The notes below the pieces were generated by a model that was not told where the DNA came from, ran no database searches, and saw only the letters and a program-made list of their open reading frames with translations. A stretch of DNA of 64,000 bases from Falsirhodobacter sp. 20TX0035. GTDB lineage: Bacteria; Pseudomonadota; Alphaproteobacteria; Rhodobacterales; Rhodobacteraceae. Below are positions 29,238-43,927 of the stretch, piece by piece. The stretch is from NCBI RefSeq assembly GCF_028307215.1, contig NZ_JAQMHV010000002.1, positions 186,001-250,000 of the forward strand, in the 5' to 3' direction. Position 1 is the first letter of the stretch; each line of letters starts with the position of its first letter. The position numbers and the translations under genes were made by a program.

Positions 29238-29699
29238 CTACACATCCACCGGCCGCCCTTCGGCAATTGCCTCCATCGAGAAGTAGGAGGTGACGGCGTC
29301 CAGCTCCATCGTCTCGATCAGGCGCTGGTAGACGTGATCGTAGCCCTTCATGTCCGGCGCCACGATCTTCAGCATGTAATCGTAGTCGCCCCCGATCCGG
29401 TGAAAGTCGACCACATTTGGAATGGACAGGACATGCGCGCGGAACCGCTTCAGCCAGTCGCCGGAATGGTTGCGCGTGCGAATCATCGCGAACACCACCA
29501 GCCCTTGGCCCAACGCCTCGCGGTCGACGCGGATGGTCTGGCCGGTGATGATGCCCCGCTCCTCCAGGTTGCGGATGCGGCGCCAGCAGGCGTTCTGCGA
29601 CAGGCCGACCTTGTCCGCCAGATCCCGCTGGGTCTGGCGGGCGTCGCGCTGCAACTCCGCCAGGATGCGCGCGTCGATCCGGTCCAGCGCGTCCTTCAT
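29238..29699 (-). CDS. Lrp/AsnC-family transcriptional regulator
   Basis: A 153-residue Lrp/AsnC regulator. The winged helix-turn-helix is LDRIDARILAELQRDARQTQ then LADKVGLSQNACWRRIRNLEERGII at residues 5-50; the ligand-sensing RAM domain has GGDYDYMLKIVAPDMKGYDHV near residues 100-120. Lrp proteins respond to amino acids or related small molecules. Its ATG overlaps the stop of the AhpD-like gene, making it the thirteenth and last gene of the long operon, and it may provide local feedback on that operon or the adjacent aminotransferase gene. Confidence 0.9.
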   Translation of the reverse strand: MKDALDRIDARILAELQRDARQTQRDLADKVGLSQNACWRRIRNLEERGIITGQTIRVDREALGQGLVVFAMIRTRNHSGDWLKRFRAHVLSIPNVVDFHRIGGDYDYMLKIVAPDMKGYDHVYQRLIETMELDAVTSYFSMEAIAEGRPVDV

Positions 29700-30259
29700 G
29701 CGGGTGTGGCGTGGCCAAGGACGTGCATCAGCCGGTTCGCCCAGCCGAAGATCGCGATGGAATGGATCAGGTCCACGATCTCCGCCTCCTCCATCCCCGC
29801 ATCCCGCAGGGCCTGCACATCCGCCGTCGTGGCCGTGCTTGGGGTGACCGACAGGCGGCGGGCGAAGGCGTAGATGGCGGCGTCGCGGGGTGACAGATCC
29901 TGCGGCCGGTCCAGATAGACCGCCGACACCACGGCGTCGCTTTGCGTCAGGTGTGCGTGCTGGCGGGCATGGACCACCGCGCAATACCGGCACCCGTTCA
30001 CGACCGAGGCGCCAAGCGCCCCCAGTTCCCGGTCCGGACGCGGCAGGCCGCCCTCGGCGTACATGATCGCGTTGAACAAAACGGTCCGCGCGACATAGCT
30101 TTCCGGATCATGGGCCAGCGTCCGCACATAGGGCGACACCTTCTTGGCCGAGGGCGTGACCTTCATCGCCTCCAACTGCGCGGACGTGGCGTCGGCCAGC
30201 TCCACGGGGGCGACATGCGGGTGCCACACCAGGGGTTTCAGCTTGATCTGCGGTGTCAT
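29696..30259 (-). CDS. AhpD-like alkylhydroperoxidase-domain protein (Avi_7169-type)
   Basis: A 187-residue carboxymuconolactone decarboxylase/AhpD-fold protein. The redox motif is NGCRYCAVVHARQ (CxxC with following His) near residues 88-100, preceded by ELGALGASVV. The C-terminal half (DAAIYAFARRLSVTPSTAT, EIVDLIHSIAIFGWANRLMHVLG) is typical of uncharacterised peroxidase-related proteins. I recall a family named after Avi_7169 with this layout which co-occurs with the CMD protein encoded next door. It is coupled at both ends by ATGA overlaps. Confidence 0.8.
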   Translation of the reverse strand: MTPQIKLKPLVWHPHVAPVELADATSAQLEAMKVTPSAKKVSPYVRTLAHDPESYVARTVLFNAIMYAEGGLPRPDRELGALGASVVNGCRYCAVVHARQHAHLTQSDAVVSAVYLDRPQDLSPRDAAIYAFARRLSVTPSTATTADVQALRDAGMEEAEIVDLIHSIAIFGWANRLMHVLGHATPA

Positions 30260-30717
30260 GCGGCCCCCAGAAGGCGAAGGCCCGCCACGACGCGGACCTG
30301 AAAGTTCACATAGGCGATCAGCTCCGACAAGGCCACGATCTGCGGTGCGGAGAGGCCCGCCGCCTCCAGCCGCCGGATGTGCTCGGCGGTGGCGGAGGTC
30401 GGATCGGCGGTGACCATGTCGACATGCCGCGCAATGGTGTTCAGAGGCTCTGGAAGGTCCGTCGCGCCCGATGCGACAGCGGAAAAATCTTCCATCACAA
30501 CGTATTGCGCAGCGATGGTGTCATCCTTGTTCAACAGCGCCATGCGGTGGGCCAGTGCATTCCGCAGCCCTGCGCTCAGCCCCAGATCGTCCGCAGGGTG
30601 CAGGACCGAGGCGCGGCAGGCCTCCGCCCCCTCCACGAATTCCGGCCGCCGGCGCCGCAGGGCATGGCGGGGATCGGTGCCGTCCAGACCGGCGGCCTGA
30701 TCGATGGCGTCTGTCAT
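30256..30717 (-). CDS. CMD-domain protein (Avi_7170-type)
   Basis: A 153-residue protein of the carboxymuconolactone-decarboxylase-like fold but without the CxxC redox pair of its neighbour. Visible blocks are RRPEFVEGAEACRASVLHP, GLRNALAHRMALLN and the helix EHIRRLEAAGLSAPQIVALSELIAYVNFQVRVVAGLRLLG. I associate this with a CMD-domain family named after Avi_7170, recorded as a partner of the Avi_7169 type. The start is ATG 30717, overlapping the molybdoenzyme stop; longer in-frame extensions upstream lie inside that gene. Role unknown. Confidence 0.7.
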   Translation of the reverse strand: MTDAIDQAAGLDGTDPRHALRRRRPEFVEGAEACRASVLHPADDLGLSAGLRNALAHRMALLNKDDTIAAQYVVMEDFSAVASGATDLPEPLNTIARHVDMVTADPTSATAEHIRRLEAAGLSAPQIVALSELIAYVNFQVRVVAGLRLLGAA

Positions 30718-32945
30718 AGGCGTGCCTTTCGGATCTCGATCAGCGTGGGGTCGGCCAAGGGCCGCAATCCCACGCGGGGATGGTTCGCGCTGGCGCCCTG
30801 GCTCAAAGCCGAACTGCCCGCGTCGGAGGTGAGGACGTTCGGGTTGCCGCCCAGATCCACCCGCCGGCCAAGCGCGTCGGTCACCGGATCGAACCAGCCG
30901 CCCGTCGGCAGCACCAGTGTGCCCCGGCGCACGCCCGGATCGGGCGCGACGCTGACAAGGGTGACGCCGCGGGCGTTGAACACCTCGGCAATGTCGCCCG
31001 TGTCCAGTTCCAGCGGGGACAGGTCGTCTGGATGGGCGCGCAGCACCTCGAACCCCTGCGCCCGTGCGTCGCGCGCCAGCGGACCCGGGTCCAGCTGGCT
31101 GTGCAGCCGCGTTTCGGGCTGGGGGGACAGGAGGTGGAAGGGCAGCGGCTCCTCCTCCCCGTCCGGATCCAGCCAGGTGGGGTGGGACGGGCAATCGGAC
31201 AGCGCGAAGCCTGCGATCCGGTCGGATACCAGCTCGATCCGGCCGGACGGCGTGGACAGCGGGTGTCCGGCCCGAAGCTGGGCAAAGGGCACCATCGGCC
31301 GCGGGGCGGCTTGATCCGCGTCCAGGCAGGCATAGCCGTCCTGACGGAAGCGGTCCCAGTCCGGAAGCTCCGGATGCGCCATGCGGTAGCGGTCATACAG
31401 GTGCTCCAGCCACGCGGCTTCGTCCCGGCCATCGCGGAAGGCGTTCTCCAGCCCCAGATGGGCGGCGATGCGGGCGAAGACCTCGTGATCCGTCGGCACG
31501 CCGGGCGGGGGCGGCATCACGGCGGGGCTGTAGGCGAGCCACCGGTCCCGCGACGATCCGGCGATGTCCGACCGCTCGAACGGCATGGCCGAGGGAAAGA
31601 CAAGATCGGCGTGGCGCGCGGTGGCCGTCCAGACATTCTCGTGCACGATCACGGTGTCGGGGCGCGTCCACGCGCGTTCCAGCCGGAACAGGTCCTGATG
31701 GTGGTGATACGGATTGCCGCCGGCCCACCAGACCAGCCGGATGTCCGGCAGGTCCAGCATCTTGCCGTCATAGGGCAGCGTGCCGCCCGGACGCTCCAGC
31801 AGATCGGTGATCCGCGCGACGGGGATGTAGTCGGACACGGGGTTCGTGCCCATGGGGAAAGACGGTCCCCGCAGCCCCCGCACCGGCTGCCCGACCGAAG
31901 ACACGGCCGAGAGGCCAAGCGCCAGCCCCAGCCCCGGCCGTCCCATCACCCCTGCCATGGCCGCCAGCGCGACCGAGGCCCAGTAGGGCTGTTCCCCGAA
32001 CCGCGCGCGCTGCAACGACCAGGCAAGGTTCAGAAGGCTCGGCTCGGCCGCCAGCCGCCGGGCGAGGGCGCGCAGATCCTCGGCCGGGACGCCGCACAGG
32101 GCGGCGGCCCAGTCGGCCGATTTCGGGGTGCCGTCGTCCTGGCCCAGAAGATGGCGCGCGAACTCCTCTGCCCCCGTGGTGAAGGATCCAAGGAAGGCGG
32201 CGTCGGCCAGCCCCTCCTCCAGCAGCGTGTGGCACATGGCCAGCATGGCGGCGGTGTCGCTGCCCGGCCGGATCGGGATGTGCCGGCCCTGCACCGCGTC
32301 CCGCGCGTCGGGGGACAGGGTGACGATTTCGCCCCCGGCGGCGCGGAACCGTTCCAGCCAGTCGCCGACGCGGTGGGCGCCGGTCGATCCGGCCTCCACC
32401 TGCGCGTTGGCCAGACGCATGCCGCCAAAGGCCACGATCAGGCGGCAATGCTCCACGATCTGGTCCCAGCTGGGCGCCAGCGCCCCCACCTCGGCATGTT
32501 CGGCGCCGACGACATGGGGCAGGATGACCTTGGCCGTGCCATAGCTGTAGGTGTTCACCGCGAAGGTGAACCCGCCGGCAAGGTTCAGGAACCGCTTCAG
32601 CTGGCTTTGCGGGTGGTGGAACCGCCCCGCGCTGCCCCAGCCGTAGGACCCGCCGAAGATCGCGCGGTTGCCATGCGCCGTCCGCACCCGGTCCAGTTCG
32701 CGGGCGGCCAGCGCCGTCGCCTCCTCCAGCGACAGTTCGACATAGGTGTCGTCGCCCCGCGCGGCCCCGCCATCCCCGGCCAGCCATCCCTTGCGGGCCA
32801 TCGGCACGCGCACCCGCGCCGGATCGCGCGCAAGGTCCAGATGCGTCAGGCCCACGGGGGACGGGGCGGGGTCGTGGCGGAAGGGCTTCAGGGTGGGGCC
32901 CGGCCCCACCTCGAAGAACCCGAAATGCGAGGCGAAGATCTGCAT
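30714..32945 (-). CDS. Molybdopterin oxidoreductase of the BisC/TorA/DMSO-reductase group
   Basis: A 743-residue bis-MGD enzyme. SYGWGSAGRFHHPQSQLKRFLN near residues 100-121 matches the DMSO-reductase block in which Ser (here S105) ligates molybdenum. NTYSYGTAKVILPHVVG, PMGTNPVSDYIPVARI, GGNPYHHHQDLFRLERAW and HENVWTATARHADLVFPSA are typical of BisC/TorA. There is no Tat signal and no Fe-S Cys motif, so it is cytoplasmic like biotin sulfoxide reductase BisC. It would reduce an S-oxide or N-oxide. It is coupled to the ABC binding-protein gene (one-base overlap) and to the CMD gene, implying action on the imported substrate. Confidence 0.88.
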   Translation of the reverse strand: MQIFASHFGFFEVGPGPTLKPFRHDPAPSPVGLTHLDLARDPARVRVPMARKGWLAGDGGAARGDDTYVELSLEEATALAARELDRVRTAHGNRAIFGGSYGWGSAGRFHHPQSQLKRFLNLAGGFTFAVNTYSYGTAKVILPHVVGAEHAEVGALAPSWDQIVEHCRLIVAFGGMRLANAQVEAGSTGAHRVGDWLERFRAAGGEIVTLSPDARDAVQGRHIPIRPGSDTAAMLAMCHTLLEEGLADAAFLGSFTTGAEEFARHLLGQDDGTPKSADWAAALCGVPAEDLRALARRLAAEPSLLNLAWSLQRARFGEQPYWASVALAAMAGVMGRPGLGLALGLSAVSSVGQPVRGLRGPSFPMGTNPVSDYIPVARITDLLERPGGTLPYDGKMLDLPDIRLVWWAGGNPYHHHQDLFRLERAWTRPDTVIVHENVWTATARHADLVFPSAMPFERSDIAGSSRDRWLAYSPAVMPPPPGVPTDHEVFARIAAHLGLENAFRDGRDEAAWLEHLYDRYRMAHPELPDWDRFRQDGYACLDADQAAPRPMVPFAQLRAGHPLSTPSGRIELVSDRIAGFALSDCPSHPTWLDPDGEEEPLPFHLLSPQPETRLHSQLDPGPLARDARAQGFEVLRAHPDDLSPLELDTGDIAEVFNARGVTLVSVAPDPGVRRGTLVLPTGGWFDPVTDALGRRVDLGGNPNVLTSDAGSSALSQGASANHPRVGLRPLADPTLIEIRKARL

Positions 32946-34426
32946 CAGCCGGCGGGCTTCATGTCGAAGGCGCGCACCCAGTCATCCCCGCGCGGCGTGT
33001 AGTCCACCTTGTTGGACACACCATAGGTCGCGGGCTGGGCGTACATGAAGACGACGGGCGCCTCCTCACACATGATGCGGGCGGCGTCGGCATAGGCGGC
33101 CTTGCGGGCGTCCGGGTCGGTGGTGGCGTTGCCCGCCTCCAGCGCCGCGCCGAAGTTCGCGTCGTTCCAGTAGGCGTATTGATCTCCCGGCTTGAACAGC
33201 GTCAGCAGCCCGTCCGCGTCGATCGTGGGCCAGGCCTGACCCAGCAGCGACATCTGCCCCAGATCATGCGCCTTGCGGTACTTGTCCATGTAGGCGCCGA
33301 ATTCCATCGCACGGTATTCGGTCTGCACGCCCACATCGGCGAACATCTGGGCGACGGCCTGCGCCACCTCCTCGCCCTGAAGATAGGTCGCCGTCGGAAC
33401 CTCGAACTCCAGGGGGCGGGACAGGTCCACGCCAGACTCCTTGATCATCTCCTCGGCCTTTTCGGGGTCGTAGACGTAAGGTTTCAGGTCGGGGTTGTAG
33501 CCGAAATAGGCGGGCGTCATGACTTGGCAGTTCGACACCTCGGCCTCGCCCCCGAACAGGACGTCCACGATGGCGTCCTTGTCCACGGCGTAGTTCAGCG
33601 CCTGACGGAACATCTTGTTGTCCATCGGCGGCTTTTCGGTGTTGAACTTGATGAAGACCGACCGCGTGGACGGCACGGCGCCCCCCTTGGCCACGCCGCT
33701 GGCGCTGATGCGCGGCAGTTCCGAGGGCGGGATCTTGTTGATGAAGTCGACCTCGCCCGCCACCAGCGCCGCGATGGCCGAGGAGGTTTCGGGGATCGTG
33801 CGGAAGGTCACATGCTCGAAGGCCGGCGCCTCGCCGAAGAAGTCGGGGTTGCGGGTCATGGTGATGCTGTCGCCGGGGGTCACCCTCTCGATGACATAAG
33901 GCCCGCCCGACATGGTTTCGGACGCGGGATCGTGGCTTGCGGCCCATTCGGGCGGCAGCAGCATGAACATCGACAACTGCGCCGGCAGCGCGGGATAGGG
34001 GCTGGAGGTCTTGATCTCCACCTCGGTCGGCGAGATCACCGTCGCCCCCGTCACCGGCGTGAACCACGAGGAGATGCGCGTCGGGTTGTCCTTGTTCGTG
34101 ACGCGGGCGATGTTCCACGCCACGGTGTTGGCGTCGATCGGCTCCCCGTTCGCGAACTTCGCCCCTTCCACCAGCTTGAAGCGCCAGGTCAGGTCGTCCA
34201 CGGCCTCCCACTCGGTCGCGAGGGAGGGGTGCAGTTCCATGTCCGGCCCGCGCAGGATCAGCGAGGGGTAGACGTGGCTGAGGACCGACAGGTCCAGCCC
34301 CACCGACGCGCTTTGATGCGGGTCCAGCGTGTTGACGGCGTTGGTCAGCGCCAGCGTCACGTCCTGCGCGGCGGCGGCGGACCCCAGAAGGGCGGCCAGA
34401 ACGGCGGTGTATCCAAGATGTCGCAT
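32945..34426 (-). CDS. ABC transporter substrate-binding protein, family 5 (Dpp/Opp type)
   Basis: A 493-residue periplasmic binding protein. Residues 1-20 (MRHLGYTAVLAALLGSAAAA) are a signal peptide. The SBP_bac_5 fold is shown by NTLDPHQSASVGLDLSVLSHVYPSLI, LATEWEAVDDLTWRFKLVEGAKFANG, SGGPYVIERVTPGDSITMTRNPDFFG and MFRQALNYAVDKDAIVDVLFGGEAE. It delivers the ligand to the two permeases and two ATPases of the same operon. Family 5 proteins bind peptides, opines, nickel or glycosides; this one might belong to the KPN_01854-type family, which I recall as accompanying the CMD/AhpD proteins downstream. Confidence 0.88.
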   Translation of the reverse strand: MRHLGYTAVLAALLGSAAAAQDVTLALTNAVNTLDPHQSASVGLDLSVLSHVYPSLILRGPDMELHPSLATEWEAVDDLTWRFKLVEGAKFANGEPIDANTVAWNIARVTNKDNPTRISSWFTPVTGATVISPTEVEIKTSSPYPALPAQLSMFMLLPPEWAASHDPASETMSGGPYVIERVTPGDSITMTRNPDFFGEAPAFEHVTFRTIPETSSAIAALVAGEVDFINKIPPSELPRISASGVAKGGAVPSTRSVFIKFNTEKPPMDNKMFRQALNYAVDKDAIVDVLFGGEAEVSNCQVMTPAYFGYNPDLKPYVYDPEKAEEMIKESGVDLSRPLEFEVPTATYLQGEEVAQAVAQMFADVGVQTEYRAMEFGAYMDKYRKAHDLGQMSLLGQAWPTIDADGLLTLFKPGDQYAYWNDANFGAALEAGNATTDPDARKAAYADAARIMCEEAPVVFMYAQPATYGVSNKVDYTPRGDDWVRAFDMKPAG

Positions 34427-34436
34427 GGGATTTCCT

Positions 34437-35327
34437 TCAGGGCTGGAGGACGAAATGACCCGGCGCGACCTCGGCCATGGCGGCCTCGCGCGCGGGGATG
34501 TTGGCGGACACGTCGAAGATCTCGCGCTTCGGGCGGGGGCGGTCCGGGTCGGGCACGGGGATCGCGGCTAGGAGCGACCGGGTGTAGGGGTGACGCGGGT
34601 CGGCGAAGATCTGCTCCACCGGGCCCGTCTCCACGATGCGTCCGCGCAGCATCACGGCGACCCGCTGGCACAGGTAGCGCACCATCGACAGATCGTGCGC
34701 GATGAACAGATAGGCGAGCCCCAGCCGGTCCTGCAAATCCTGGAACAGGTTCACGATCTGCGCCTGGATGGACACGTCCAGCGCGGTGATCGGTTCGTCC
34801 GCAACGATGAAGGACGGGTTCAGGGCAATGGCGCGGGCGATGTTGATGCGCTGGCGCTGCCCGCCACTGAATTCATGCGGGTATCGCGACATGAACGCGG
34901 GGTCGAGGCCGGTCATCCGGAATAGCTCCGCCACCCGGTCGGGATGGGCGTCCTGCTTGTGAACGACCAGCGGTTCGGCCACAAAGGCGCCCACCTTCAT
35001 CCGCGGGTTCAGCGCGGAATAGGGATCCTGAAAGATCATCTGCATCCGGGCGCGCAGGGGCTTCATCTCGCGCGCGCCCAACCCCGTGATCTCCCGCCCC
35101 TCGAACCGGATCGACCCTTCGTCGGCCGGTTCCAGTTGCAGCGTCACGCGGCCGGCGGTGGACTTGCCCGACCCGCTTTCCCCCACCAGACCCAGCGTTT
35201 CCCCCGGCATGACGTGGAACGAGATGTCGTTGACCGCATGGGTCACGGGCTTTTCCGCCCCCAGCAGGGTGCGCCCGCCGCCATAGCTGCGGCGCAGGCC
35301 CCGGACCTCGATCAGCGGATCAGACAT
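34437..35327 (-). CDS. ABC transporter ATP-binding protein (DppF/OppF type)
   Basis: A 296-residue ATPase. Walker A is GESGSGKSTAGRV, the signature is EFSGGQRQRINIARAIALNP, and Walker B is FIVADEPITALDVS; the oligopeptide-transporter C-terminal extension begins at PVEQIFADPRHPYTRSLLAAIP. It pairs with the DppD-type ATPase to drive import. GAAGGAGGC precedes the ATG. It overlaps the DppD-type gene by eight bases and is ten bases before the binding-protein gene. Confidence 0.93.
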   Translation of the reverse strand: MSDPLIEVRGLRRSYGGGRTLLGAEKPVTHAVNDISFHVMPGETLGLVGESGSGKSTAGRVTLQLEPADEGSIRFEGREITGLGAREMKPLRARMQMIFQDPYSALNPRMKVGAFVAEPLVVHKQDAHPDRVAELFRMTGLDPAFMSRYPHEFSGGQRQRINIARAIALNPSFIVADEPITALDVSIQAQIVNLFQDLQDRLGLAYLFIAHDLSMVRYLCQRVAVMLRGRIVETGPVEQIFADPRHPYTRSLLAAIPVPDPDRPRPKREIFDVSANIPAREAAMAEVAPGHFVLQP

Positions 35328-36315
35328 GGCCCGCCTCCTTCAGCGCGGTGGGCAGATCGTACCATGCCGCGACCATGTGCCCATCCCCCACGGATCGCAA
35401 GGGCGGAACCTCCGTGTGGCAGCGGGGGGTGGCGAAGGGGTTGCGGGGGGCGAAGGGGTCGCCCTTCGGCGGATCGGCCATGTTCGGCGGCGATCCGGGG
35501 ATCTGGTAGAGCCGCCTTTGCGCCCGCGCGCCTTCGTCCGGCAGTGACCGCAGAAGCCCCCAAGTATAGGCCGAGCGTGGATCGCGGAACACCGGGCCCA
35601 CCGGCCCCCGCTCCATGATCCGCCCGCCATACATGACCTGGATCGTATCGGCGAGTTCGGCGACCACGCCCATGTCATGCGTGATCCAGATGACGGTGGT
35701 GCCCAGCCGGTCCTTCAGGTCGCGCACCAGATCCAGGATCTGCGCCTGCACCGTCACGTCCAGCGCCGTCGTCGCCTCGTCCGCGATCAGCAGCTTCGGG
35801 TTGCAGGACAGGCCGATGGCGATCATCACGCGCTGGCGCATCCCGCCGGAAAACTCGTGCGGATACTGCTTCAGGCGGTCGGCGGGGCGCGGAATGCCGA
35901 CCAGCTCCAGCAGCTCCGTCGCGCGGGCGTCGGCGCGGCGTCCCTTCAGGTCGGTGTGCCGCTCGATCACCTCGCGCAGCTGCCGCCCCACGGTCAGGAC
36001 AGGGTTGAGCGAGGACATGGGATCCTGGAACACCATGCCGATCTGCCCGCCGCGCAGGTTCCGCAATTCGCCCTGCGACATGGAAAGAAGGTCGCGCCCC
36101 TGAAACAGCACCCGCCCGCCCAGCACCTTGGCGGGCGGCTTCGGCAGCAGCCCCAGCATCGCCAGCACATGCACCGACTTGCCCGAGCCGCTTTCGCCCA
36201 CGACGCCCAGCGTCTCGCCCTCGTCCAGCGTGTAGCTGACATCGTTCACCGCATGGACACGCCCCGAAGGGGTGTCAAAGGCGACAGTCAGGTTCTCGAC
36301 CTCCAAGAGCGCCAT
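35320..36315 (-). CDS. ABC transporter ATP-binding protein (DppD/OppD type)
   Basis: A 331-residue ATPase. Walker A is GESGSGKSVHVLAMLGLLP, Q-loop VFQDPMSSLNPVLTVG, signature EFSGGMRQRVMIAIGLSCNP, Walker B LLIADEATTALDVT. The Walker B has DEA rather than the more usual DEP, a common DppD variant. The C-terminus carries the oligo_HPY region (DPRSAYTWGLLRSLP). The ATG follows directly after the M24 stop. It forms a heterodimer with the DppF-type protein encoded next. Confidence 0.93.
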   Translation of the reverse strand: MALLEVENLTVAFDTPSGRVHAVNDVSYTLDEGETLGVVGESGSGKSVHVLAMLGLLPKPPAKVLGGRVLFQGRDLLSMSQGELRNLRGGQIGMVFQDPMSSLNPVLTVGRQLREVIERHTDLKGRRADARATELLELVGIPRPADRLKQYPHEFSGGMRQRVMIAIGLSCNPKLLIADEATTALDVTVQAQILDLVRDLKDRLGTTVIWITHDMGVVAELADTIQVMYGGRIMERGPVGPVFRDPRSAYTWGLLRSLPDEGARAQRRLYQIPGSPPNMADPPKGDPFAPRNPFATPRCHTEVPPLRSVGDGHMVAAWYDLPTALKEAGHV

Positions 36316-37482
36316 TCAGACCTCGATATACCCGCCGCGGGACCGCGTGAGGAACTCGTGCCCCGTTTCCGTGATCAGGATCGTGTCCGATATCTGGGTG
36401 GCCACCCCCCGGTCCGGCACGCGCAGGTTCGGCTCCAGCGTAAACAGCATGCCGGGTTCAAGGATCACGTCCGTCTTGCCGTCCAGCGAGGTGTGTTCAT
36501 GCGCGCCAAGGCCGATGGTGTGGCCGATCCGGCCGGGAATGTTCGCGGCATAACCAGCAGCCTCCAGCCCGCGCTTCGTGATGTGGAACAGGTCCGCTAG
36601 CGGGGCGCCGGGGCGCATGGCGGGGGCGATGTCTTCGCGGATCTTCAGGATCGTGTCGATCGCGCGGCGGTTCGCGTCCGGCAACGGGCCATAGGCGAAG
36701 GTGCGTTCGTTCTCGGCATGGATGCCGTTCGCGATGGCCCAGATGAAGACGGCGACCGCCTCCCCCCGCTGCGGACGGCGTTGCGTGGGGTTGTCGCAGT
36801 TGCGGAACATCCGGTCCCCCGCCAGCGCCCAGGTCCAAAGGCCGTTCTGCGCGCCGCCTTCCAGCGATCCGAAATCCGCAACCTCGTGATCCGGCAAGTG
36901 CAGCGCCCAGTGCCGGTTCATCGCGGACATGGAGGCGGTGGCGATCTCACGCTCGCTCCCGCCCTGCGCCAGCGCGTCCTGCGCGGCGTCCATGCCGATA
37001 TCCGCCACCGCGGCGGCGACACGGGCGTTCGCGATCTCGTCCGCGTCCTTTACCAGACGCGCGCGGTCGAAGATGGCAGAGCTGTCCACCAGCTTCGCCT
37101 TCGGCAGCAGCTCGGTCAGCAGGCGGTGGCGGGCGACGGGCAGGTAATCCTCCTCCACCCCCAGCACGCCGGCATCCAGACCCTTTTCGGCCAGAATGGC
37201 GCGCAGCGCGTCCTGCCAGTTCGGCCCCATGGTGACCTTGGTGGACCATGCGCCGTAAAGCCGGATGTCCTTCACCCAGCTTTCTGACCGGCCGTGATCG
37301 TCGCGCAATGCGTGGACAAGGATCACAGGCTCCCCCTCGGCCGGCAGGATCGCGATCACGGGGTGGGAGAAGATGATCGGGTTGAAGCCGGACAGGTAGA
37401 AGCTGTGCTCGGGCTTGAAGGTCACGAGCGCGTCGATGCCCTTCGCGGCCATCAGCGTCTTCAGGCGGGAGATGCGGTTCAT
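36316..37482 (-). CDS. M24-fold (Xaa-Pro peptidase/creatinase-like) protein lacking most metal ligands
   Basis: A 388-residue protein with the creatinase N-domain (LKTLMAAKGIDALVTFKPEHSFYLSG) and the pita-bread M24 domain (residues 145-388). M24 metallopeptidases bind two metals through Asp, Asp, His, Glu, Glu. By alignment to the usual motifs these positions here are F246, E257, H321, E350 and S365, so three of five are changed. Creatinase, a hydrolase of a C-N bond in the same fold, also works without metal. The protein may therefore be a creatinase-like amidinohydrolase-type or other C-N hydrolase rather than a peptidase. ATGA-coupled to the permease gene upstream. Confidence 0.82.
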   Translation of the reverse strand: MNRISRLKTLMAAKGIDALVTFKPEHSFYLSGFNPIIFSHPVIAILPAEGEPVILVHALRDDHGRSESWVKDIRLYGAWSTKVTMGPNWQDALRAILAEKGLDAGVLGVEEDYLPVARHRLLTELLPKAKLVDSSAIFDRARLVKDADEIANARVAAAVADIGMDAAQDALAQGGSEREIATASMSAMNRHWALHLPDHEVADFGSLEGGAQNGLWTWALAGDRMFRNCDNPTQRRPQRGEAVAVFIWAIANGIHAENERTFAYGPLPDANRRAIDTILKIREDIAPAMRPGAPLADLFHITKRGLEAAGYAANIPGRIGHTIGLGAHEHTSLDGKTDVILEPGMLFTLEPNLRVPDRGVATQISDTILITETGHEFLTRSRGGYIEV

Positions 37483-38318
37483 CGGGCGCTCCTTGTCTTT
37501 GGGTCGAAGTAATCGCGCAGCCAGTCGCCGAACAGGTTGACGCCCAGCACGGTCAGCATGATGGCCACGCCGGGGAAGGTGACGGCCCACCACGCGGTGG
37601 AGATGTAGGTCCGCCCGTCCGCCAGCATCCGTCCCCAGGACGGGTTCGGCGGCTGCACGCCAAGGCCGAGGAAAGACAGCGCGGCGTCCATCACGATGAT
37701 CCGCGCCAGTTCCAGCGTGGCCACGACCAGCGCGGGCGTCAGGACGTTGGGCAGGATGTGCCGCAGCATGATCCGCCAGCCGGAGGCCCCGATGGCGCGG
37801 GCCGACTGCACGAACTCCCGCTCCCGCAAGGACAGGACCTGCCCCCGGATGATGCGGGCATAGCGGATCCACGAGGTCAGGGCGAGGACCGCCACCACGT
37901 TCACCATCGACGGGCCGAGGGCGGCGACGACCAGCAGCGCCAGCATCATCAGGGGGATGGCCAGCTGGATGTCCACCAGCCGCATCAGGATGCGGTCGGT
38001 GATCCCGCCCGCATAACCGGCAAGGATGCCAAGGAAGGTGCCGACGATCCCGCCCGCCACCACCGCCGCCCCGGCCACCATCAGCGTGATGCGGCTGCCG
38101 TAAACGATGCGGGACAGGATGTCGCGGCCGACCTCGTCCGTGCCTAAAGGATGCGGCCCCCACCAGTCCGGCGGCACCATGCGGGCACGCAAGCTGCCGC
38201 GCGTCGGATCCTCCAGCCCCAGCCACGGCGCCAGGACGGCCACCGCGACGAACAGCACGAGGATGACGAACCCCGCCATCCCGACCTTGCTGCGCGCCAG
38301 TTCCTTGAAGAAGGTCAT
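37479..38318 (-). CDS. ABC transporter permease (DppC type)
   Basis: A 279-residue permease. One N-terminal helix (GMAGFVILVLFVAVAVLAPWLG), then the periplasmic PHPLGTDEVGRDILSRIVYGSR motif of DppC proteins, four to five more helices, and the EAA loop ARAIGASGWRIMLRHILPNVL that docks on the ATPases. It begins one base after the DppB-type stop and overlaps the M24 start by four bases. Confidence 0.93.
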   Translation of the reverse strand: MTFFKELARSKVGMAGFVILVLFVAVAVLAPWLGLEDPTRGSLRARMVPPDWWGPHPLGTDEVGRDILSRIVYGSRITLMVAGAAVVAGGIVGTFLGILAGYAGGITDRILMRLVDIQLAIPLMMLALLVVAALGPSMVNVVAVLALTSWIRYARIIRGQVLSLREREFVQSARAIGASGWRIMLRHILPNVLTPALVVATLELARIIVMDAALSFLGLGVQPPNPSWGRMLADGRTYISTAWWAVTFPGVAIMLTVLGVNLFGDWLRDYFDPKTRSAR

Positions 38319-38319
38319 G

Positions 38320-39240
38320 TCAGCGCTCCGCCCGGATGCGGGGGTCCAGCACGCCATAGAGCATGTCGACCGCGAAGTTGATCAGCACGAAGATCGTGGC
38401 CACGACGAAGATGCCCGCCTGGATCACCGGAAAGTCGTTGGCCTGGATCGCCTGCAGGATCAGCCGCCCCACGCCGGGCCAGGCGAAGACGGTTTCCGTC
38501 ACCACTGACCCGCCCAGAAGCTCCCCCGCAAGGATGGCCGTCATGGTCGTGACCGGGATCAGCGCGTTGCGGGCCGTGTGCCACAGGAACACGGTCGTGG
38601 GCATCAGCCCCTTGGCGCGGGCGGTGCGTATGTAATCCTCGCGCAGGATGTCCAGCATCGACGACCGCAAAAGCCGCGCGATGGAGGCGGAGACGAACAC
38701 CGCCAGCGTCAGCGCGGGCAGCACCAGATGCGCGAAGGTGCCGTAGCCCCCGGTGGGCAACCAGCCCAGCGACACGCCGAAATAGAGGATCAGCATGATC
38801 CCCAGCCAGAACACCGGCGTCGCCTGCCCCAGAAGGGCCACAGTCATCACGACGAGTTCGGCCACCGTGCCGCGCTTCAGCGCCGCGATGGCGCCCGCGA
38901 CCGCCCCGATCGCGATGCCCAGCACCATGGCCGATCCGGCCAGCAGCGCCGTGGCGGGCATGCGTTCCCACACCACCGCCAGCGCCGGACGCCCGTGCTG
39001 GAACGAGGTGCCGAAATCGCCCTGCACCGCCTGCCACAGGAAGGTCAAATACTGCATCACCAACGGCTCGTTCAGGCCCAGCTGGCTCCGCAGCGCCTCG
39101 ATCTGCTCGGCGCTGGCGCCCACGGGCAGCAGAAGGGTGGAGGGATCGCCCAGAACGCGCGTGACAAAGAACACGATCGTCACCACGCCCCAGACGGCCA
39201 GCAGCGATTCCAGCAGGCGCTTGATCAGGTAGCTGCCCAT
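38320..39240 (-). CDS. ABC transporter permease (DppB type)
   Basis: A 306-residue permease with six predicted helices. The N-terminal MGSYLIKRLLESLLAVWGVVT and the LGLNEPLVMQYLTFLWQAVQGDFGTSF block are standard DppB features; the EAA loop is TARAKGLMPTTVFLWHTARNALIP. The ATG at 39240 overlaps the last base of the hydrolase stop codon. Longer in-frame starts lie within the hydrolase gene and are not needed. Confidence 0.93.
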   Translation of the reverse strand: MGSYLIKRLLESLLAVWGVVTIVFFVTRVLGDPSTLLLPVGASAEQIEALRSQLGLNEPLVMQYLTFLWQAVQGDFGTSFQHGRPALAVVWERMPATALLAGSAMVLGIAIGAVAGAIAALKRGTVAELVVMTVALLGQATPVFWLGIMLILYFGVSLGWLPTGGYGTFAHLVLPALTLAVFVSASIARLLRSSMLDILREDYIRTARAKGLMPTTVFLWHTARNALIPVTTMTAILAGELLGGSVVTETVFAWPGVGRLILQAIQANDFPVIQAGIFVVATIFVLINFAVDMLYGVLDPRIRAER

Positions 39241-40094
39241 CAGCCCTCCGTCCGCGCCAGGAAGCCGCGGATATGGGCCACGACCTCGGCGTTCTTCTCG
39301 ACATGGCAGGAATGGTTGGCGCCGGGCACCTCCCACAGTTCGGCGTTGGGCATCAGTTCGGCGATCAGGCGGGACTGGCTGGGCGGGCAGATCCAGTCCT
39401 TTTCGCCGCAGAAGGCCAGCGTGGGTGTCGGCACCGAGCGCAAGGCGTCGCGCAGGTCATGGGCCTTTTCGCGGAACATCTCGTTGTGGGTTTCGGCATG
39501 CAGATGCATCGTGCGGGTGCGCTCCAGCGCGGCGTCGGGATCGAATGTCTCGTAATACAGCGGTTGCAGCGCCAGCCAGATCAGCCGCAATTCAATGTCG
39601 TCCACGATGTTTTCCGAAAACAGCTTGTCGATCATCGCGGGTGAGGCCGAGGGCACCTTGTCGATCCGCGCCTTGAACGTCTCGATCGCCTCCGCCTCGT
39701 GGTGGTGGCTGGGGGCCGTGCCGCGCACGATCAGCCGCGACAGGTGGCGGTGATAATGGACGGCATAGGTCAGCGCGATCATGCCGCCGAAGCTGCCGCC
39801 CTGCAGGATGATCTTCCCCTCCTCGCCGCAGAAATGGCGGCGGAAGGCGTCCACGTCGTCGGCATACTGGCGGAAGTTCATGGGATAGGTGATCGTGGAC
39901 AGCCCGCAGCCGCGCTGGTCATAGGCGATCACGCGGTAGCGGTCGGCCAGAGCCTTGTAGGCGTTCCATTCACCCAGATGGTCCCCGATGCCGCGCCCGC
40001 CATGCAGCAGGATGATCGTCTCGGGATGCTCCTCCCCTGCGATGCGATAGCGGAAGGTGCAGCCGTTCAGGGTGATGTAACGTTCGTCGGTCAT
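39240..40094 (-). CDS. Alpha/beta hydrolase, proline-iminopeptidase-like
   Basis: A 284-residue cytoplasmic alpha/beta hydrolase. The oxyanion region is IILLHGGRGIGDHL, then RVIAYDQRGCGLS (the prolyl-aminopeptidase style DQRGxGxS), nucleophile S101 in QGGSFGGMIALTYA, acid in CGEKDWICPP, and His in GANHSCHVEKN. Family members cleave N-terminal proline, amides or esters; the real substrate is presumably a product of the imported compound. The gene overlaps the monooxygenase stop (ATGA) and the permease start (one base). Confidence 0.87.
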   Translation of the reverse strand: MTDERYITLNGCTFRYRIAGEEHPETIILLHGGRGIGDHLGEWNAYKALADRYRVIAYDQRGCGLSTITYPMNFRQYADDVDAFRRHFCGEEGKIILQGGSFGGMIALTYAVHYHRHLSRLIVRGTAPSHHHEAEAIETFKARIDKVPSASPAMIDKLFSENIVDDIELRLIWLALQPLYYETFDPDAALERTRTMHLHAETHNEMFREKAHDLRDALRSVPTPTLAFCGEKDWICPPSQSRLIAELMPNAELWEVPGANHSCHVEKNAEVVAHIRGFLARTEG

Positions 40095-41512
40095 GCCTGC
40101 ACCTTCAGCGTCGGGGTGGAATCCGTCCATTCGTCGCCCTGAAGTTCCGGCGTGTCAAACGCCTGCAGCCGTTCGTAATGCACGGCCACATCCTCGGCGA
40201 ACAGGCTGGCGGCGATGCCGCGCACCAGACGGTCGGCCCCCGCGCTGACGGCCGGAATGTCGCCCGACACCTTGCCATGCGTCAACATGGCCGCGTCGTT
40301 GAAGCAGTGGATGTGGGCCAGCAGCGGGCAGGCGCCGGGCACCTTTTCCCGGAACTCGAAATCCGGGCCCAGATCGGGCGCCTCGATCATGTTCTGGCGG
40401 GCGGGGCCCATGTCGGGTGTGTAGCGACCATCTGCCCAGTTGCGGATGTGGGGGGCGATGGCGGCGAACTCGTCCCGGCCCGAAAAGTCGTTGGCAAAGC
40501 CGGTGGCCGCGATCAGGAAGTCCACCGGCATGGCCCCTTGCGTCGTTTCGATCCGCAGGCGGCCCGCATCCTCGTGCACCGACCGGATGCCGCAATCCAG
40601 AAAGAACCGCGCGTTCGGGTGGCGCGACACGCGAAGGGTGGAACTGCGGGGCGGCGGCGTCTGCGTACCGGCGGTGTAGTCCACGAACCGCCAGCGCCAC
40701 GCGTCGGGCAGCAGGTGCATGCCGTGCACCACGCCTTGGCTGCCGATCCCGGTCATCTTGTTGACGCGCGGCATCTCCTTGCGGCGGATCAGCAGGTCCA
40801 CCTGCCCCGCCCCCGCCTCCAACGCGGCGGCGGCGTTGTCCATTGACGACGCGCCCGCCCCGATCACCGCCACATGCTTGCCGCGCAGGGCGTCAAAGTC
40901 GATGTCATCGGCCGAATGCGCCCAGAAGCGGCGGTCCACGTTCTTCAGGAAGTCCGGCACCGCCGCACCCCCCAGCCCCGACCGCCCCGTGGCCAGCACA
41001 AGGCGGCGGCACAACAGGCGGCCGGAGATCGCCCCCTTCACCTCCAGCGCGATCAGGTCGCCGTCAAAGGACAGCTTCGTCATCCGCGTGTCGTTCACCA
41101 CGGGCAGGTCCAGCACGTGGCGATACCAGACGAGGTAGTCCATCCACATCCCCTTGGGGATCTTGTCCAGCCGCTCCCACTCCGCCTCTCCGTGCTGGGC
41201 GGTGAACCAGGCGCGGAAGGTCAGGGCGGGCAGGCCAAGCGCGGGCCCCGCCAGCGCCTTGGGCGATCGCAGCGTTTCCATGCGGGCGAAGGTGATCCAC
41301 GGCCCTTCCCGCCCCGCGGGGGCGGCGTCCAGCGTCAGGATGTTGGTGATGCCCGTCAGCTTCAGCTTCGCCGTTGCCGCCAGGCCGCACATCCCGGCGC
41401 CGATGACGATGACGTCGTGCACGCCTTCCCGCGGCGGCACCCAAGGCTTAGAGGGCAGTTCGAGGTTGCGAAGATCCTCGGCCAGTCGGGTTTCAAGGGC
41501 GTGCAGGGTCAT
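40091..41512 (-). CDS. FAD/NAD(P)H-dependent monooxygenase-like flavoprotein
   Basis: A 473-residue flavoprotein with two dinucleotide-binding motifs: GAGMCG at residues 38-43 for FAD and GAGASS at 218-223 for NAD(P)H, the arrangement of flavin-containing and N-hydroxylating monooxygenases. Other blocks are LVLATGRSGLGGAAVPDFL and the late LIAATGFANDFSG. A canonical FMO fingerprint is not exact, so Baeyer-Villiger, N-hydroxylation or S-oxidation are all possible. It is the first enzyme gene after the LysR gene and is ATGA-coupled on both sides, so it probably acts on the imported compound. Confidence 0.8.
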   Translation of the reverse strand: MTLHALETRLAEDLRNLELPSKPWVPPREGVHDVIVIGAGMCGLAATAKLKLTGITNILTLDAAPAGREGPWITFARMETLRSPKALAGPALGLPALTFRAWFTAQHGEAEWERLDKIPKGMWMDYLVWYRHVLDLPVVNDTRMTKLSFDGDLIALEVKGAISGRLLCRRLVLATGRSGLGGAAVPDFLKNVDRRFWAHSADDIDFDALRGKHVAVIGAGASSMDNAAAALEAGAGQVDLLIRRKEMPRVNKMTGIGSQGVVHGMHLLPDAWRWRFVDYTAGTQTPPPRSSTLRVSRHPNARFFLDCGIRSVHEDAGRLRIETTQGAMPVDFLIAATGFANDFSGRDEFAAIAPHIRNWADGRYTPDMGPARQNMIEAPDLGPDFEFREKVPGACPLLAHIHCFNDAAMLTHGKVSGDIPAVSAGADRLVRGIAASLFAEDVAVHYERLQAFDTPELQGDEWTDSTPTLKVQA

Positions 41513-42474
41513 CGATCGTCCGTAGGTTCAGGCGGGGTCCAGGCCCCGGCGGCTTCGCCGGCACCGGCCGGGTCCAAGATCTGCAGATCGGGAATGGCCT
41601 CGCGGGCCACGGCTTCCGCCGCATCCACCAAGGCGAGGGTCAGGGGCCGCAGCGGGCGCCCCAAGGGAGCGATGACGCCCCAGTGAAACGGCACCGCCAC
41701 GTCCAGCGGACGGACCACGATGTCGGGCAAGGGCCCGCCATAGGCCGTCACCGGATCGATGATGGCCACGCCCCCGGTCTGGCGGACCATCTGCAACGCG
41801 CCAAGGGCCACGTTGGTGCGGATGATCGCCTTCGGCACCAGGCCCCGGGTTTCCATCAGGCGGGCGACGCGGGCCTGGAACCGCAGCGGGTCCAGCATGG
41901 TGACCAGCGTCCGCTCGGTGAAGACGGCCAGCGGCACCACATCCTCGGCCGCCAAGGGATCGTCGGCCCGCAGGGCCACGACGTTCGAGGCGGCATACAG
42001 GCGCAGAACCTCCAGCCCGGGAACGTCCAGGGGAAGGCTGGAAAACCCGATCTCGGCCCTCCCCGTCCGAACATCCTGCGCCACGGCCGAAGGCACGTGC
42101 TGGGCCACATGCACCTCGAACGGCAGATCGCCCGTCACGCGCGCGATGGCGTTCGGGATCAGCCCCCAGGCCATGGCCGCCGTCGCCGCCACCTGAAAGA
42201 TGCGCCCCTTGCCCCCCGCGATGGCCTTGGCCCGCGCCGCCAGTTCCGTGAACGAGGACAGGAGCCGCCGCGCCTCGATCTCGAAGGCTACCCCTTCCTC
42301 GGACAGCTGCACGCGGCGGCCCGTCCGGTGGAACAGCTGAAAGCCCAGCTCCGCCTCCAGATCCTGAATGATGCGCGAGACGGAGGGCTGCGACCGGCCC
42401 AGCATGTCCGCGGCCCGGGTGATGCTGCCGCTGGCAGCAACGGCAAGGAAGGTCTGAAGATCACGCGTTTCCAT
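41509..42474 (-). CDS. LysR-family transcriptional regulator, first gene of the long operon
   Basis: A 321-residue LysR regulator. The helix-turn-helix is LQTFLAVAASGSITRAADMLGRSQPSVSRIIQDLEAEL at residues 5-42; the effector domain follows from about 90. Unlike most LysR genes, which are divergent from their targets, this one is co-directional and its stop overlaps the monooxygenase start, so it is probably autoregulated together with the twelve genes that follow. ATG 42474 is chosen because it gives the normal METRDLQTFL start; a longer frame begins at 42510. Confidence 0.88.
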   Translation of the reverse strand: METRDLQTFLAVAASGSITRAADMLGRSQPSVSRIIQDLEAELGFQLFHRTGRRVQLSEEGVAFEIEARRLLSSFTELAARAKAIAGGKGRIFQVAATAAMAWGLIPNAIARVTGDLPFEVHVAQHVPSAVAQDVRTGRAEIGFSSLPLDVPGLEVLRLYAASNVVALRADDPLAAEDVVPLAVFTERTLVTMLDPLRFQARVARLMETRGLVPKAIIRTNVALGALQMVRQTGGVAIIDPVTAYGGPLPDIVVRPLDVAVPFHWGVIAPLGRPLRPLTLALVDAAEAVAREAIPDLQILDPAGAGEAAGAWTPPEPTDDR

Positions 42475-43784: not shown

Positions 43785-43927
43785 GTGTCGGTCCTTGAGC
43801 ATCGGAAGACGCCATCCTGCACCCATTCCACCCGCAAGGAAAGGCACCCCGACCACCCGGCCCGGCGGCACGCTGGATGACAACGGTGCCAAAGAGGTCG
43901 ACGCGCTGATGAGCGGGTGCCCGCCCC

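What the first reader, a model, noticed from the sequence alone, without database searches (positions are those of the whole stretch)
29238..42474. Thirteen-gene, almost fully overlapping operon coupling a Dpp-type importer to an unusual enzyme set
On the minus strand 13 genes run without a gap larger than ten bases, most joined by ATGA or one-base overlaps: LysR, flavin monooxygenase, proline-iminopeptidase-like hydrolase, DppB, DppC, M24-fold protein, DppD, DppF, family 5 binding protein, BisC-like molybdoenzyme, CMD protein, AhpD-like protein, Lrp. Seen directly: order, overlaps and motifs. Known: CMD (Avi_7170-type) and AhpD (Avi_7169-type) families were noted, as I recall, to co-occur with a KPN_01854-type binding protein, but without an assigned pathway. 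Inference: the operon imports one small amide- or oxide-bearing compound and breaks it down by S/N-oxide reduction, oxygenation and C-N hydrolysis. This is the best candidate here for an undescribed pathway.
Basis: partly seen in the sequence, partly recalled or inferred. Interest (0 to 1): 0.8.

Follow-up and report, generated by a model that had tools for sequence, protein, structure and literature searches.

The report
Operon likely freeing cysteine from conjugates
A conserved bacterial gene cluster probably imports a modified cysteine compound, oxidises it to free the cysteine and then strips off the sulfur; the idea rests on gene neighbourhoods and is not yet tested in the laboratory.

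Summary
In detail: 13 minus-strand genes (29238-42474), largest gap 10 bp, 9 of 12 junctions overlapping. A 14th gene, a SufS-like class V PLP enzyme (27685-29115), follows after 122 bp.
The operon is a conserved unit: LysR to AhpD (12 genes) recur in 8 of 8 loci spanning it, window included. The wider core is smaller: the flavin monooxygenase (FMO) with AhpD or a CMD-AhpD fusion, in 61 of 80 named FMO loci, with varying importers.
New clue: cysteine. Where the window carries Lrp-SufS, Frigidibacter carries Cds1 (L-cysteine desulfhydrase family); two others carry RidA-Cds1 beside AhpD; IscS/NifS types lie near the core elsewhere. The window Lrp is nearest E. coli DecR, a cysteine-responsive regulator. 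Across 295 genomes FMO tracks SufS (21 of 27 versus 53 of 268, p=2e-9).
Best reading: import, oxygenation and C-N hydrolysis of a cysteine conjugate, then desulfuration. The substrate is unproven; 62 of 80 named loci lack a local desulfurase, and 4 of 8 complete operons have neither SufS nor Cds1 nearby. TIGR04028-30 all score below cut-off. New variant of a known kind.

The parts
41509..42474 (-). LysR-type regulator, first gene of the operon
   Evidence: PF00126/PF03466; 4-base overlap with FMO
40091..41512 (-). FMO: class B flavin monooxygenase, core enzyme
   Evidence: no specific family above cut-off in NCBIfam, PF13738; AlphaFold model pLDDT 90.6, nearest solved folds are N-hydroxylating monooxygenases such as SidA, PvdA, DfoA, TM 0.60-0.66 by query length; 27 of 295 family genomes carry it at E <= 1e-60
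39240..40094 (-). alpha/beta hydrolase, proline-iminopeptidase-like
   Evidence: PF00561; TIGR01250 90.8 of 167.65 bits, below cut-off
38320..39240 (-). DppB-type permease
   Evidence: Opp2B 310.4/350 and GsiC 269.6/463, both below cut-off
37479..38318 (-). DppC-type permease
   Evidence: Opp4C 293.1/350, below cut-off
36316..37482 (-). M24-fold (creatinase/prolidase) protein without the M24 metal set
   Evidence: PF00557, PF01321; 2 of 5 prolidase ligand positions kept, in 9 of 9 sequences aligned, window included
35320..36315 (-). DppD-type ATPase
   Evidence: OppD subfamily 353.6/575, below cut-off
34437..35327 (-). DppF-type ATPase, best match GsiA (glutathione importer)
   Evidence: 325.4 of 1077 bits, below cut-off
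32945..34426 (-). family 5 solute-binding protein
   Evidence: PF00496; NikA 138.6/393, GsiB 130.5/594, TIGR04028 92.9/468.5, all below cut-off
30714..32945 (-). BisC-like molybdoenzyme, no signal peptide seen by eye
   Evidence: TIGR00509 698.6 of 1017.55 bits; SYGWxS motif in 6 of 6 sequences looked at, window included
30256..30717 (-). CMD-like protein without a redox cysteine pair
   Evidence: TIGR04029 81.2 of 100.75 bits; model pLDDT 97.2, weak matches to the AhpD/peroxidase-related fold, best E 0.0063
29696..30259 (-). AhpD-like peroxidase-related enzyme with CxxCxxxH
   Evidence: TIGR01926 172.7 over cut-off 81.8; motif in 74 of 74 relatives and 13 of 13 fused forms
29238..29699 (-). 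Lrp-family regulator, DecR-like
   Evidence: 41.5% identity and 129 bits to E. coli DecR against 91.7 bits (Lrp) and 47.4 bits (AsnC)
27685..29115 (-). SufS-like class V PLP enzyme, added here as the 14th gene
   Evidence: PF00266; TIGR01979 141.5 of 475.1 bits; RxGxxC and SxHK motifs in the window and in 25 of 25 relatives; co-occurs with FMO

Best explanation
The operon is a catabolic system for a small compound built on cysteine: an S-substituted cysteine, possibly still N-linked as a dipeptide, an N-acyl or a ring. Steps: (1) the Dpp-type ABC importer takes it up; (2) the C-N hydrolases (PIP-like alpha/beta hydrolase, metal-free M24-fold protein) strip the N-side group; (3) the NAD(P)H- and FAD-dependent FMO oxygenates the thioether (or ring), opening the C-S bond to a cysteine sulfenic or other oxidised product; (4) the AhpD-like CxxC enzyme with its CMD partner reduces that product to cysteine; (5) the SufS-like PLP enzyme, under a DecR-like Lrp regulator, desulfurises cysteine. 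The BisC-like molybdoenzyme of this sub-type would return substrate that arrives as an S-oxide to the thioether. Shown: gene families, conservation, alternative cysteine-degrading families in related clusters, regulator relationship, co-occurrence. Inferred: substrate class, order of steps, cofactor use and every reaction.
For: Cysteine-degrading enzymes of several kinds occupy the same niche. In the closest operon (Frigidibacter albus, FMO 78%) AhpD is followed by Cds1 (584.6 of 600 bits, just below cut-off) where the window has Lrp-SufS. G260 and Rhizobium sp. WYJ-E13 have RidA-Cds1 beside AhpD. Microvirga has a cystathionine beta-lyase (712 over 649) about 0.8 kb beyond the hydrolase gene. 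Six beta/gamma-proteobacterial loci have an IscS- or NifS-like gene near the FMO genes, one with a rhodanese domain. The DecR-like Lrp is divergent from SufS in 17, IscS/NifS in 2 and Cds1 in 1 of the 29 loci with that Lrp; in Salmonella YbaO, an Lrp-family activator, controls the cysteine desulfhydrase CdsH (PMC7767077, passages). SufS is followed by a Blh-type protein (545.7 of 625 bits) and TauE in R. tumorigenes, and by the same annotated pair in R. etli Mim1. Genome profile: SufS in 21 of 27 FMO+ (own genome included) against 53 of 268 FMO- genomes, p=1.9e-9; SufS or Cds1 in 23 of 27 against 64 of 268, p=4e-10. SufS lies in the same stretch of about 20 kb in 13 of 29 fetched FMO loci of the family. 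Control: of 12 Cds1 genes in FMO- genomes none shows AhpD or CMD in the stretch fetched, though at least four stretches are short or end at contig edges. Chemistry precedent: CmoO/CmoJ flavoenzymes free cysteine from S-alkylcysteine through a sulfenic acid that must be reduced (PMC10863075, parts 1-2 of 3).
Against: 62 of 80 named FMO loci show none of the three desulfurase clusters in the stretch held, some cut by contig ends. 4 of the 8 complete operons have neither SufS nor Cds1 in the stretch searched (HAMBI 540, EC2-8, VafX2, Microvirga). SufS-Lrp pairs also occur without FMO (SufS in 53 of 268 FMO- genomes), so the pair may be a general cysteine-detox module. The IscS-type gene tested passes the cut-off of an ordinary IscS model (563.5 over 548) and could be a housekeeping copy; whether those genomes have another was not checked. 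Cds1 models are not passed (0 of 15 family hits over cut-off). For Cds1 alone co-occurrence with FMO is not significant (3 of 27 against 12 of 268, p=0.15), and one FMO- Cds1 (L227) lies near a Dpp importer too. The nearest solved folds to FMO are N-hydroxylases. Other sub-types carry Pot importers, octopine-dehydrogenase-like, hydantoinase or M19 genes, which do not by themselves point to sulfur. No substrate was tested.
Confidence: 0.5

Rival explanations
1. N-oxygenation route: the FMO hydroxylates an amine (opine, polyamine or amino acid), and AhpD/CMD, hydrolases and an octopine-dehydrogenase-like enzyme in relatives finish breakdown. The SufS/Cds1 genes deal only with incidental cysteine.
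For: The 50 listed Foldseek matches of the FMO model are ornithine, putrescine, cadaverine and related N-hydroxylases. The Pot-type binding-protein cluster occurs in 29 and octopine-dehydrogenase-like genes in 34 of 119 loci (PF02317).
Against: The fold is shared by S-oxygenating and Baeyer-Villiger class B enzymes (general knowledge), so TM 0.60-0.66 does not decide. It does not explain why different cysteine-degrading enzymes lie beside the core in different lineages.
Confidence: 0.2
2. One reading: a small amide- or oxide-bearing compound without cysteine, broken down by S/N-oxide reduction, oxygenation and C-N hydrolysis.
For: BisC-like and M24-fold genes are present in 8 of 8 complete operons, so an oxide and a C-N bond probably do matter in this sub-type.
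Against: Leaves the SufS, Cds1, DecR-like, Blh-type and TauE associations unexplained.
Confidence: 0.15
3. Cyclic cysteine adducts (thiazolidines or 2-oxothiazolidine carboxylates) rather than S-alkylcysteines: the FMO opens the ring and the hydrolases free the amine.
For: Relatives pair the FMO with HyuAB-type hydantoinase/oxoprolinase, M19 or M24-fold proteins, fitting ring or N-acyl opening. Among solved proteins the M24-fold protein matches prolidase, ectoine hydrolase DoeA and creatinase about equally.
Against: No gene is specific to thiazolidines; sequence alone cannot separate this from thioether substrates.
Confidence: 0.2
4. Plain dipeptide or glutathione-fragment uptake, with redox genes as passengers.
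For: The importer's family matches include GsiA, GsiC and GsiB, all below cut-off.
Against: The FMO core is kept with amino-acid, Pot, Dpp and TRAP importers, so the redox genes, not the importer, define the system.
Confidence: 0.06

Closest known systems
S-alkylcysteine salvage, CmoO/CmoJ of Bacillus subtilis (PMC10863075) and the Scm pathway for S-(2-succino)cysteine (PMC12757645)
   Same: flavin monooxygenase chemistry proposed to free cysteine; need to reduce a sulfenic acid product in the CmoJ route
   Different: class B FMO instead of the YxeK/DszA-like flavoenzyme family of CmoJ; no acetyltransferase recognised in the operon; CMD-AhpD pair; ends in cysteine desulfuration (inferred)
KPN_01854 / Avi_7170 / Avi_7169 families (TIGR04028, TIGR04029, TIGR04030)
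   Same: related binding protein, CMD and AhpD proteins
   Different: all three below cut-off
DecR/CyuR-controlled cysteine degradation (E. coli cyuPA; Salmonella YbaO-CdsH)
   Same: DecR-like Lrp beside an enzyme of a cysteine-degrading kind
   Different: here with a SufS-like class V enzyme and next to an import and oxygenation operon
Creatinase / ectoine hydrolase DoeA / prolidase (M24 fold)
   Same: M24 fold
   Different: 3 of 5 prolidase metal positions lost, and the creatinase catalytic His position is Asp, in 9 of 9 sequences aligned (residue roles recalled)
BisC/TorA S- and N-oxide reductases (TIGR00509)
   Same: family match over nearly the whole length and the SYGWxS motif
   Different: 698.6 of 1017.55 bits, below cut-off

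Membership tests
TIGR04028 SBP_KPN_01854 | curated score 468.5 bits | tested here: not met
   92.9 bits
TIGR04029 CMD_Avi_7170 | curated score 100.75 bits | tested here: not met
   81.2 bits
TIGR04030 perox_Avi_7169 | curated score 233.15 bits | tested here: not met
   143.7 bits
TIGR01926 peroxidase-related enzyme | curated score 81.8 bits | tested here: met
   172.7 bits
AhpD-type thiol peroxidase/reductase | CxxCxxxH redox motif | tested here: met
   CRYCAVVH in the window; 74 of 74 and 13 of 13 relatives
TIGR00509 BisC family | curated score 1017.55 bits | tested here: not met
   698.6 bits
BisC/DMSO reductase type | serine of the SYGWxS motif (Mo ligand, recalled) | tested here: met
   6 of 6 sequences looked at, window included
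M24 metallopeptidase (prolidase) | five metal ligands D, D, H, E, E (identities recalled) | tested here: not met
   F/L/M, E, H, E, S in 9 of 9 sequences
Creatinase | catalytic His232 (recalled) | tested here: not met
   Asp in 9 of 9 sequences (position read from the alignment)
SufS cysteine desulfurase (TIGR01979) | curated score 475.1 bits | tested here: not met
   141.5 bits
Class V cysteine desulfurase type | catalytic Cys and PLP Lys motifs (roles recalled) | tested here: met
   RxGxxC and SxHK in the window and 25 of 25 relatives
Cds1 (NF052478), in relatives only | curated score 600 bits | tested here: not met
   0 of 15 family-genome hits over cut-off; 553.2-584.6 bits in the clusters scored
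DecR/CyuR cysteine regulator | closest of three named E. coli relatives compared | tested here: met
   129 bits DecR, 91.7 Lrp, 47.4 AsnC
DecR/CyuR cysteine regulator | responds to cysteine | not testable with these tools
   needs binding or reporter assay
CmoO/CmoJ or Scm S-alkylcysteine salvage | N-acetyltransferase and deacetylase in the cluster | tested here: not met
   no acetyltransferase among the 14 genes; an M20 gene lies 146 bp upstream but has no match in 11 related loci; other M20 genes occur near FMO in L059 and Ketogulonicigenium
CmoO/CmoJ or Scm S-alkylcysteine salvage | activity on S-substituted cysteine | not testable with these tools
   enzyme assay needed

The most novel reading that the evidence does not exclude
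A widespread, acetylation-free flavin route in alpha-, beta- and gamma-proteobacteria frees cysteine from S- or ring-conjugates: a class B FMO makes a cysteine sulfenic (or peroxy) product, the CMD-AhpD pair reduces it, in some lineages with a separate lipoyl (GcvH-like) protein as electron donor, and mutually replaceable cysteine-degrading enzymes (SufS-like, Cds1, IscS/NifS) under DecR-like control finish the job.
Probability: 0.28. Interest if true: 0.8.

Novelty: new variant of a known kind. Interest (0 to 1): 0.6.

Why it matters
It would give a testable function to protein families now annotated only as 'NAD(P)/FAD-dependent oxidoreductase', 'CMD domain protein' and 'peroxidase-related enzyme' in many plant-associated, soil and marine bacteria, and would add a second flavin route, built from different enzymes, to the known bacterial salvage of conjugated cysteine. 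It also predicts what AhpD/CMD proteins do beside monooxygenases: reduce an oxidised sulfur product.

Tried and rejected
Considered and set aside. (a) Membership of the KPN_01854/Avi families: below cut-off. (b) The upstream M20 gene as an N-acetylcysteine deacetylase of the pathway: it scores as acetylornithine deacetylase (TIGR01892 387.1 over 297.7), the genome has a second one at 39%, and it has no match in the 11 related loci. Against setting it aside: other M20 genes lie near FMO in L059 (41%, opposite strand) and in Ketogulonicigenium. (c) Opine or metallophore uptake: the binding protein also matches NikA and CntA, below cut-off; metallophore genes were not specifically searched for. 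(d) A promoter or terminator boundary between Lrp and SufS: the scan found no terminator-like site there and one promoter-like site in the region, just upstream of LysR, at chance frequency. (e) Literature: nine searches; no title or abstract start that they listed assigns a function to this gene set. Subscription papers are not covered and most listed papers were not opened. One paper mentions KPN_01858 (listing only).

Limits. Gene calls in unannotated loci come from a simple ORF and BLAST script, which can pick shadow ORFs; operon completeness was therefore rechecked by tblastn. The 119 clustered loci include four places fetched twice from different collections (L039/L081, L047/L092, L052/L098, L050/L157) and one locus without FMO (L074), so cluster counts of 119 are slightly inflated. 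The Frigidibacter Cds1 lies outside L081 and is not in the count of 18 of 80. The 295-genome profile has about one genome per genus but is not corrected for phylogeny, and 'FMO-' means no match at E <= 1e-60. On checking, the number of complete operons with neither SufS nor Cds1 nearby was mended from 3 to 4 of 8, and I lowered the main confidence from 0.52 to 0.50 for it.


Full report
Observation. The 13 genes are there, on the minus strand, at 29238-42474. Of 12 junctions 9 overlap (six by 4 bases, one by 8, two by 1); the others are 0, +1 and +10 bases.

Is it a unit? tblastn of the window proteins on loci spanning the cluster finds a match for each of the 12 genes from LysR to AhpD in Frigidibacter albus (L081 plus L205), an unnamed relative G260 (L040), Neorhizobium galegae HAMBI 540 (L236), Neorhizobium sp. 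EC2-8 (L237), Microvirga lotononidis (L238), Rhizobium sp. WYJ-E13 (L239) and N. galegae VafX2 (L240): 8 of 8 with the window. In VafX2 CMD is covered only 36%, and in VafX2 and EC2-8 several matches are split. Neorhizobium sp. JUb45 (L084) has 11 of 12, its locus ending before the hydrolase gene; R. terrae (L141) is cut within DppB; a Sinorhizobium medicae plasmid (L074) has the M24-fold gene alone.

The core is smaller than the operon. Over 119 loci (80 named genomes, 29 family stretches, 10 plasmid stretches, one of them without FMO and four places counted twice), AhpD-like genes occur in 74, CMD-like in 62 and a CMD-AhpD fusion in 13; among the 80 named loci AhpD or the fusion occurs in 61. 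The CxxCxxxH motif is in 74 of 74 AhpD and 13 of 13 fused proteins, while 0 of 62 CMD proteins has a CxxC pair. BisC-like and M24-fold clusters have 7 loci each of 119. Importers vary: amino-acid type binding protein (8 loci), Pot type (29), family 5 (29), and TRAP. Pantoea plasmids carry FMO relatives at 74-77%; in P. vagans C9-1 the order is FMO-CMD-AhpD and an amino-acid ABC importer.

The cysteine clue. A SufS-like class V PLP enzyme lies 122 bp beyond Lrp in the window. In the most similar operon, Frigidibacter albus, AhpD is followed by Cds1, the L-cysteine desulfhydrase family (584.6 of 600 bits). G260 and WYJ-E13 have RidA and Cds1 beside AhpD (G260 Cds1 570.7/600). Pseudochrobactrum kiredjianiae (L136, 553.2/600) and G234 (L058, 581.7/600) also have Cds1 close to AhpD or CMD. 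None of these passes the Cds1 cut-off. Microvirga has a cystathionine beta-lyase (712 over 649) about 0.8 kb beyond the hydrolase gene. Herbaspirillum (two loci) and Collimonas (two loci) have an IscS-type gene next to LysR-FMO, a Pseudomonas locus has one after AhpD, and Pseudorhodoferax has a NifS-like protein with a C-terminal rhodanese domain just before FMO. The one IscS type scored passes an ordinary IscS model (563.5 over 548), so a housekeeping role is not excluded. In R. tumorigenes the SufS-like gene is followed by a Blh-type protein (545.7 of 625 bits, matching the part of the model from position 140 on) and a TauE exporter (PF01925); R. etli Mim1 has the same order as annotated. 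Sulfide and sulfite handling fits a desulfurase working at catabolic flux (inference).

The regulator. The window Lrp is closer to E. coli DecR (41.5%, 129 bits) than to Lrp (91.7 bits) or AsnC (47.4 bits). Of 29 loci with this Lrp, it is divergent from a SufS-like gene in 17, from IscS/NifS in 2 and from Cds1 in 1; one more is beside SufS without being divergent, and 8 have no such neighbour. DecR/CyuR is a cysteine-dependent regulator of the cyuPA operon (PMC11408624, abstract start in the search listing), and in Salmonella YbaO, of the Lrp family, controls the cysteine desulfhydrase CdsH (PMC7767077, passages).

Numbers. In 295 genomes of the family (294 genera), FMO occurs in 27, the SufS-like protein in 74 and Cds1 in 15 (limits 1e-60, 1e-100, 1e-80; own genome included). 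SufS is in 21 of 27 FMO+ and 53 of 268 FMO- genomes (Fisher p=1.9e-9); SufS or Cds1 in 23 of 27 against 64 of 268 (p=4e-10); Cds1 alone in 3 of 27 against 12 of 268 (p=0.15). The three FMO+ genomes with Cds1 (G205, G234, G260) have it in the FMO cluster. The 12 Cds1 genes of FMO- genomes show no AhpD or CMD in the stretches fetched; at least four of those stretches are short or end at contig edges, one (L224) right beside Cds1, and one (L227) has a Dpp-type importer near Cds1. SufS lies in the same stretch of about 20 kb as FMO in 13 of 29 fetched family loci. Against: only 18 of 80 named FMO loci have any of the three desulfurase clusters in the stretch held; 4 of 8 complete operons have neither SufS nor Cds1 nearby; and SufS-Lrp is also found in genomes without FMO (output partly cut).

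Mechanism. The FMO model (pLDDT 90.6) is nearest to N-hydroxylating monooxygenases (TM 0.60-0.66), a class B fold shared with S-oxygenating enzymes (general knowledge). The M24-fold protein keeps only 2 of 5 prolidase metal positions and lacks creatinase His232 in 9 of 9 sequences aligned (residue roles recalled); I take it for a metal-free C-N hydrolase. The CMD model (pLDDT 97.2) matches AhpD/peroxidase-related folds, weakly (best E 0.0063). Four beta-proteobacterial loci have a GcvH-like lipoyl protein near or directly after AhpD or the fusion (132.2 bits over 117 for the one scored); AhpD of Mycobacterium tuberculosis takes electrons from lipoyl proteins (recalled), so this may be its donor. 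CmoJ in B. subtilis produces a cysteine sulfenic acid that is then reduced (PMC10863075, parts 1 and 2 of 3); by analogy I give that reduction to AhpD. In the described Bacillus routes acetylation precedes cleavage (PMC12757645, passages); no acetyltransferase was recognised here.

Verdict. A real, conserved, uncharacterised catabolic operon, best read as releasing and desulfurising cysteine from an imported conjugate. The substrate class is inferred, not shown. No title or abstract start listed in nine searches assigns this gene set a function.

Noticed in passing
window 43928-46105 (-): TonB-dependent siderophore receptor (TIGR01783 311.3 over 223.5 bits) upstream of the M20 gene.
   Followed up: no
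window 42621-43802 (-): ArgE-type M20 deacetylase 146 bp upstream of LysR, without a match in 11 related loci; a second copy (39%) elsewhere in the genome.
   Followed up: yes
window 21921-24200 (+): A second molybdoenzyme, FdhF/YdeP family (TIGR01701 891 over 582.15 bits).
   Followed up: no
window 50751-51536 (+): Another family 5 binding protein match (50.9 bits to TIGR04028, below cut-off).
   Followed up: no
L110, L117, L127, L151: GcvH-like lipoyl protein gene near or directly after AhpD or the CMD-AhpD fusion.
   Followed up: partly
L117:7122-8690: NifS-like cysteine desulfurase with a C-terminal rhodanese domain, divergent from a DecR-like Lrp (52% to DecR) and followed by FMO.
   Followed up: partly
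L239 and L141: Two FMO genes with their own clusters lie side by side, one with a DsbA-like protein and an M19 dipeptidase, the other of the M24 type in L239 (L141 is cut early).
   Followed up: no
L237 and L240: Copies of the operon on Neorhizobium plasmids give split matches for several genes, from decay or sequencing error.
   Followed up: no
L065:4696-8776: SufS-like, CMD, AhpD and an NtaA/DmoA-family luciferase-like monooxygenase lie next to one another, with the FMO nearby.
   Followed up: partly
L189-L204, L208: SufS-like genes, many beside a Lrp, stand in varied contexts without FMO nearby in family genomes (part of that output was cut).
   Followed up: partly
L227: A Cds1 gene near a Dpp-type importer and a weak M24 match (22%) in a genome without FMO at the limit used.
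   Followed up: no
L154: A distant FMO relative (38%) in a contig binned as Chlamydiia from groundwater.
   Followed up: no
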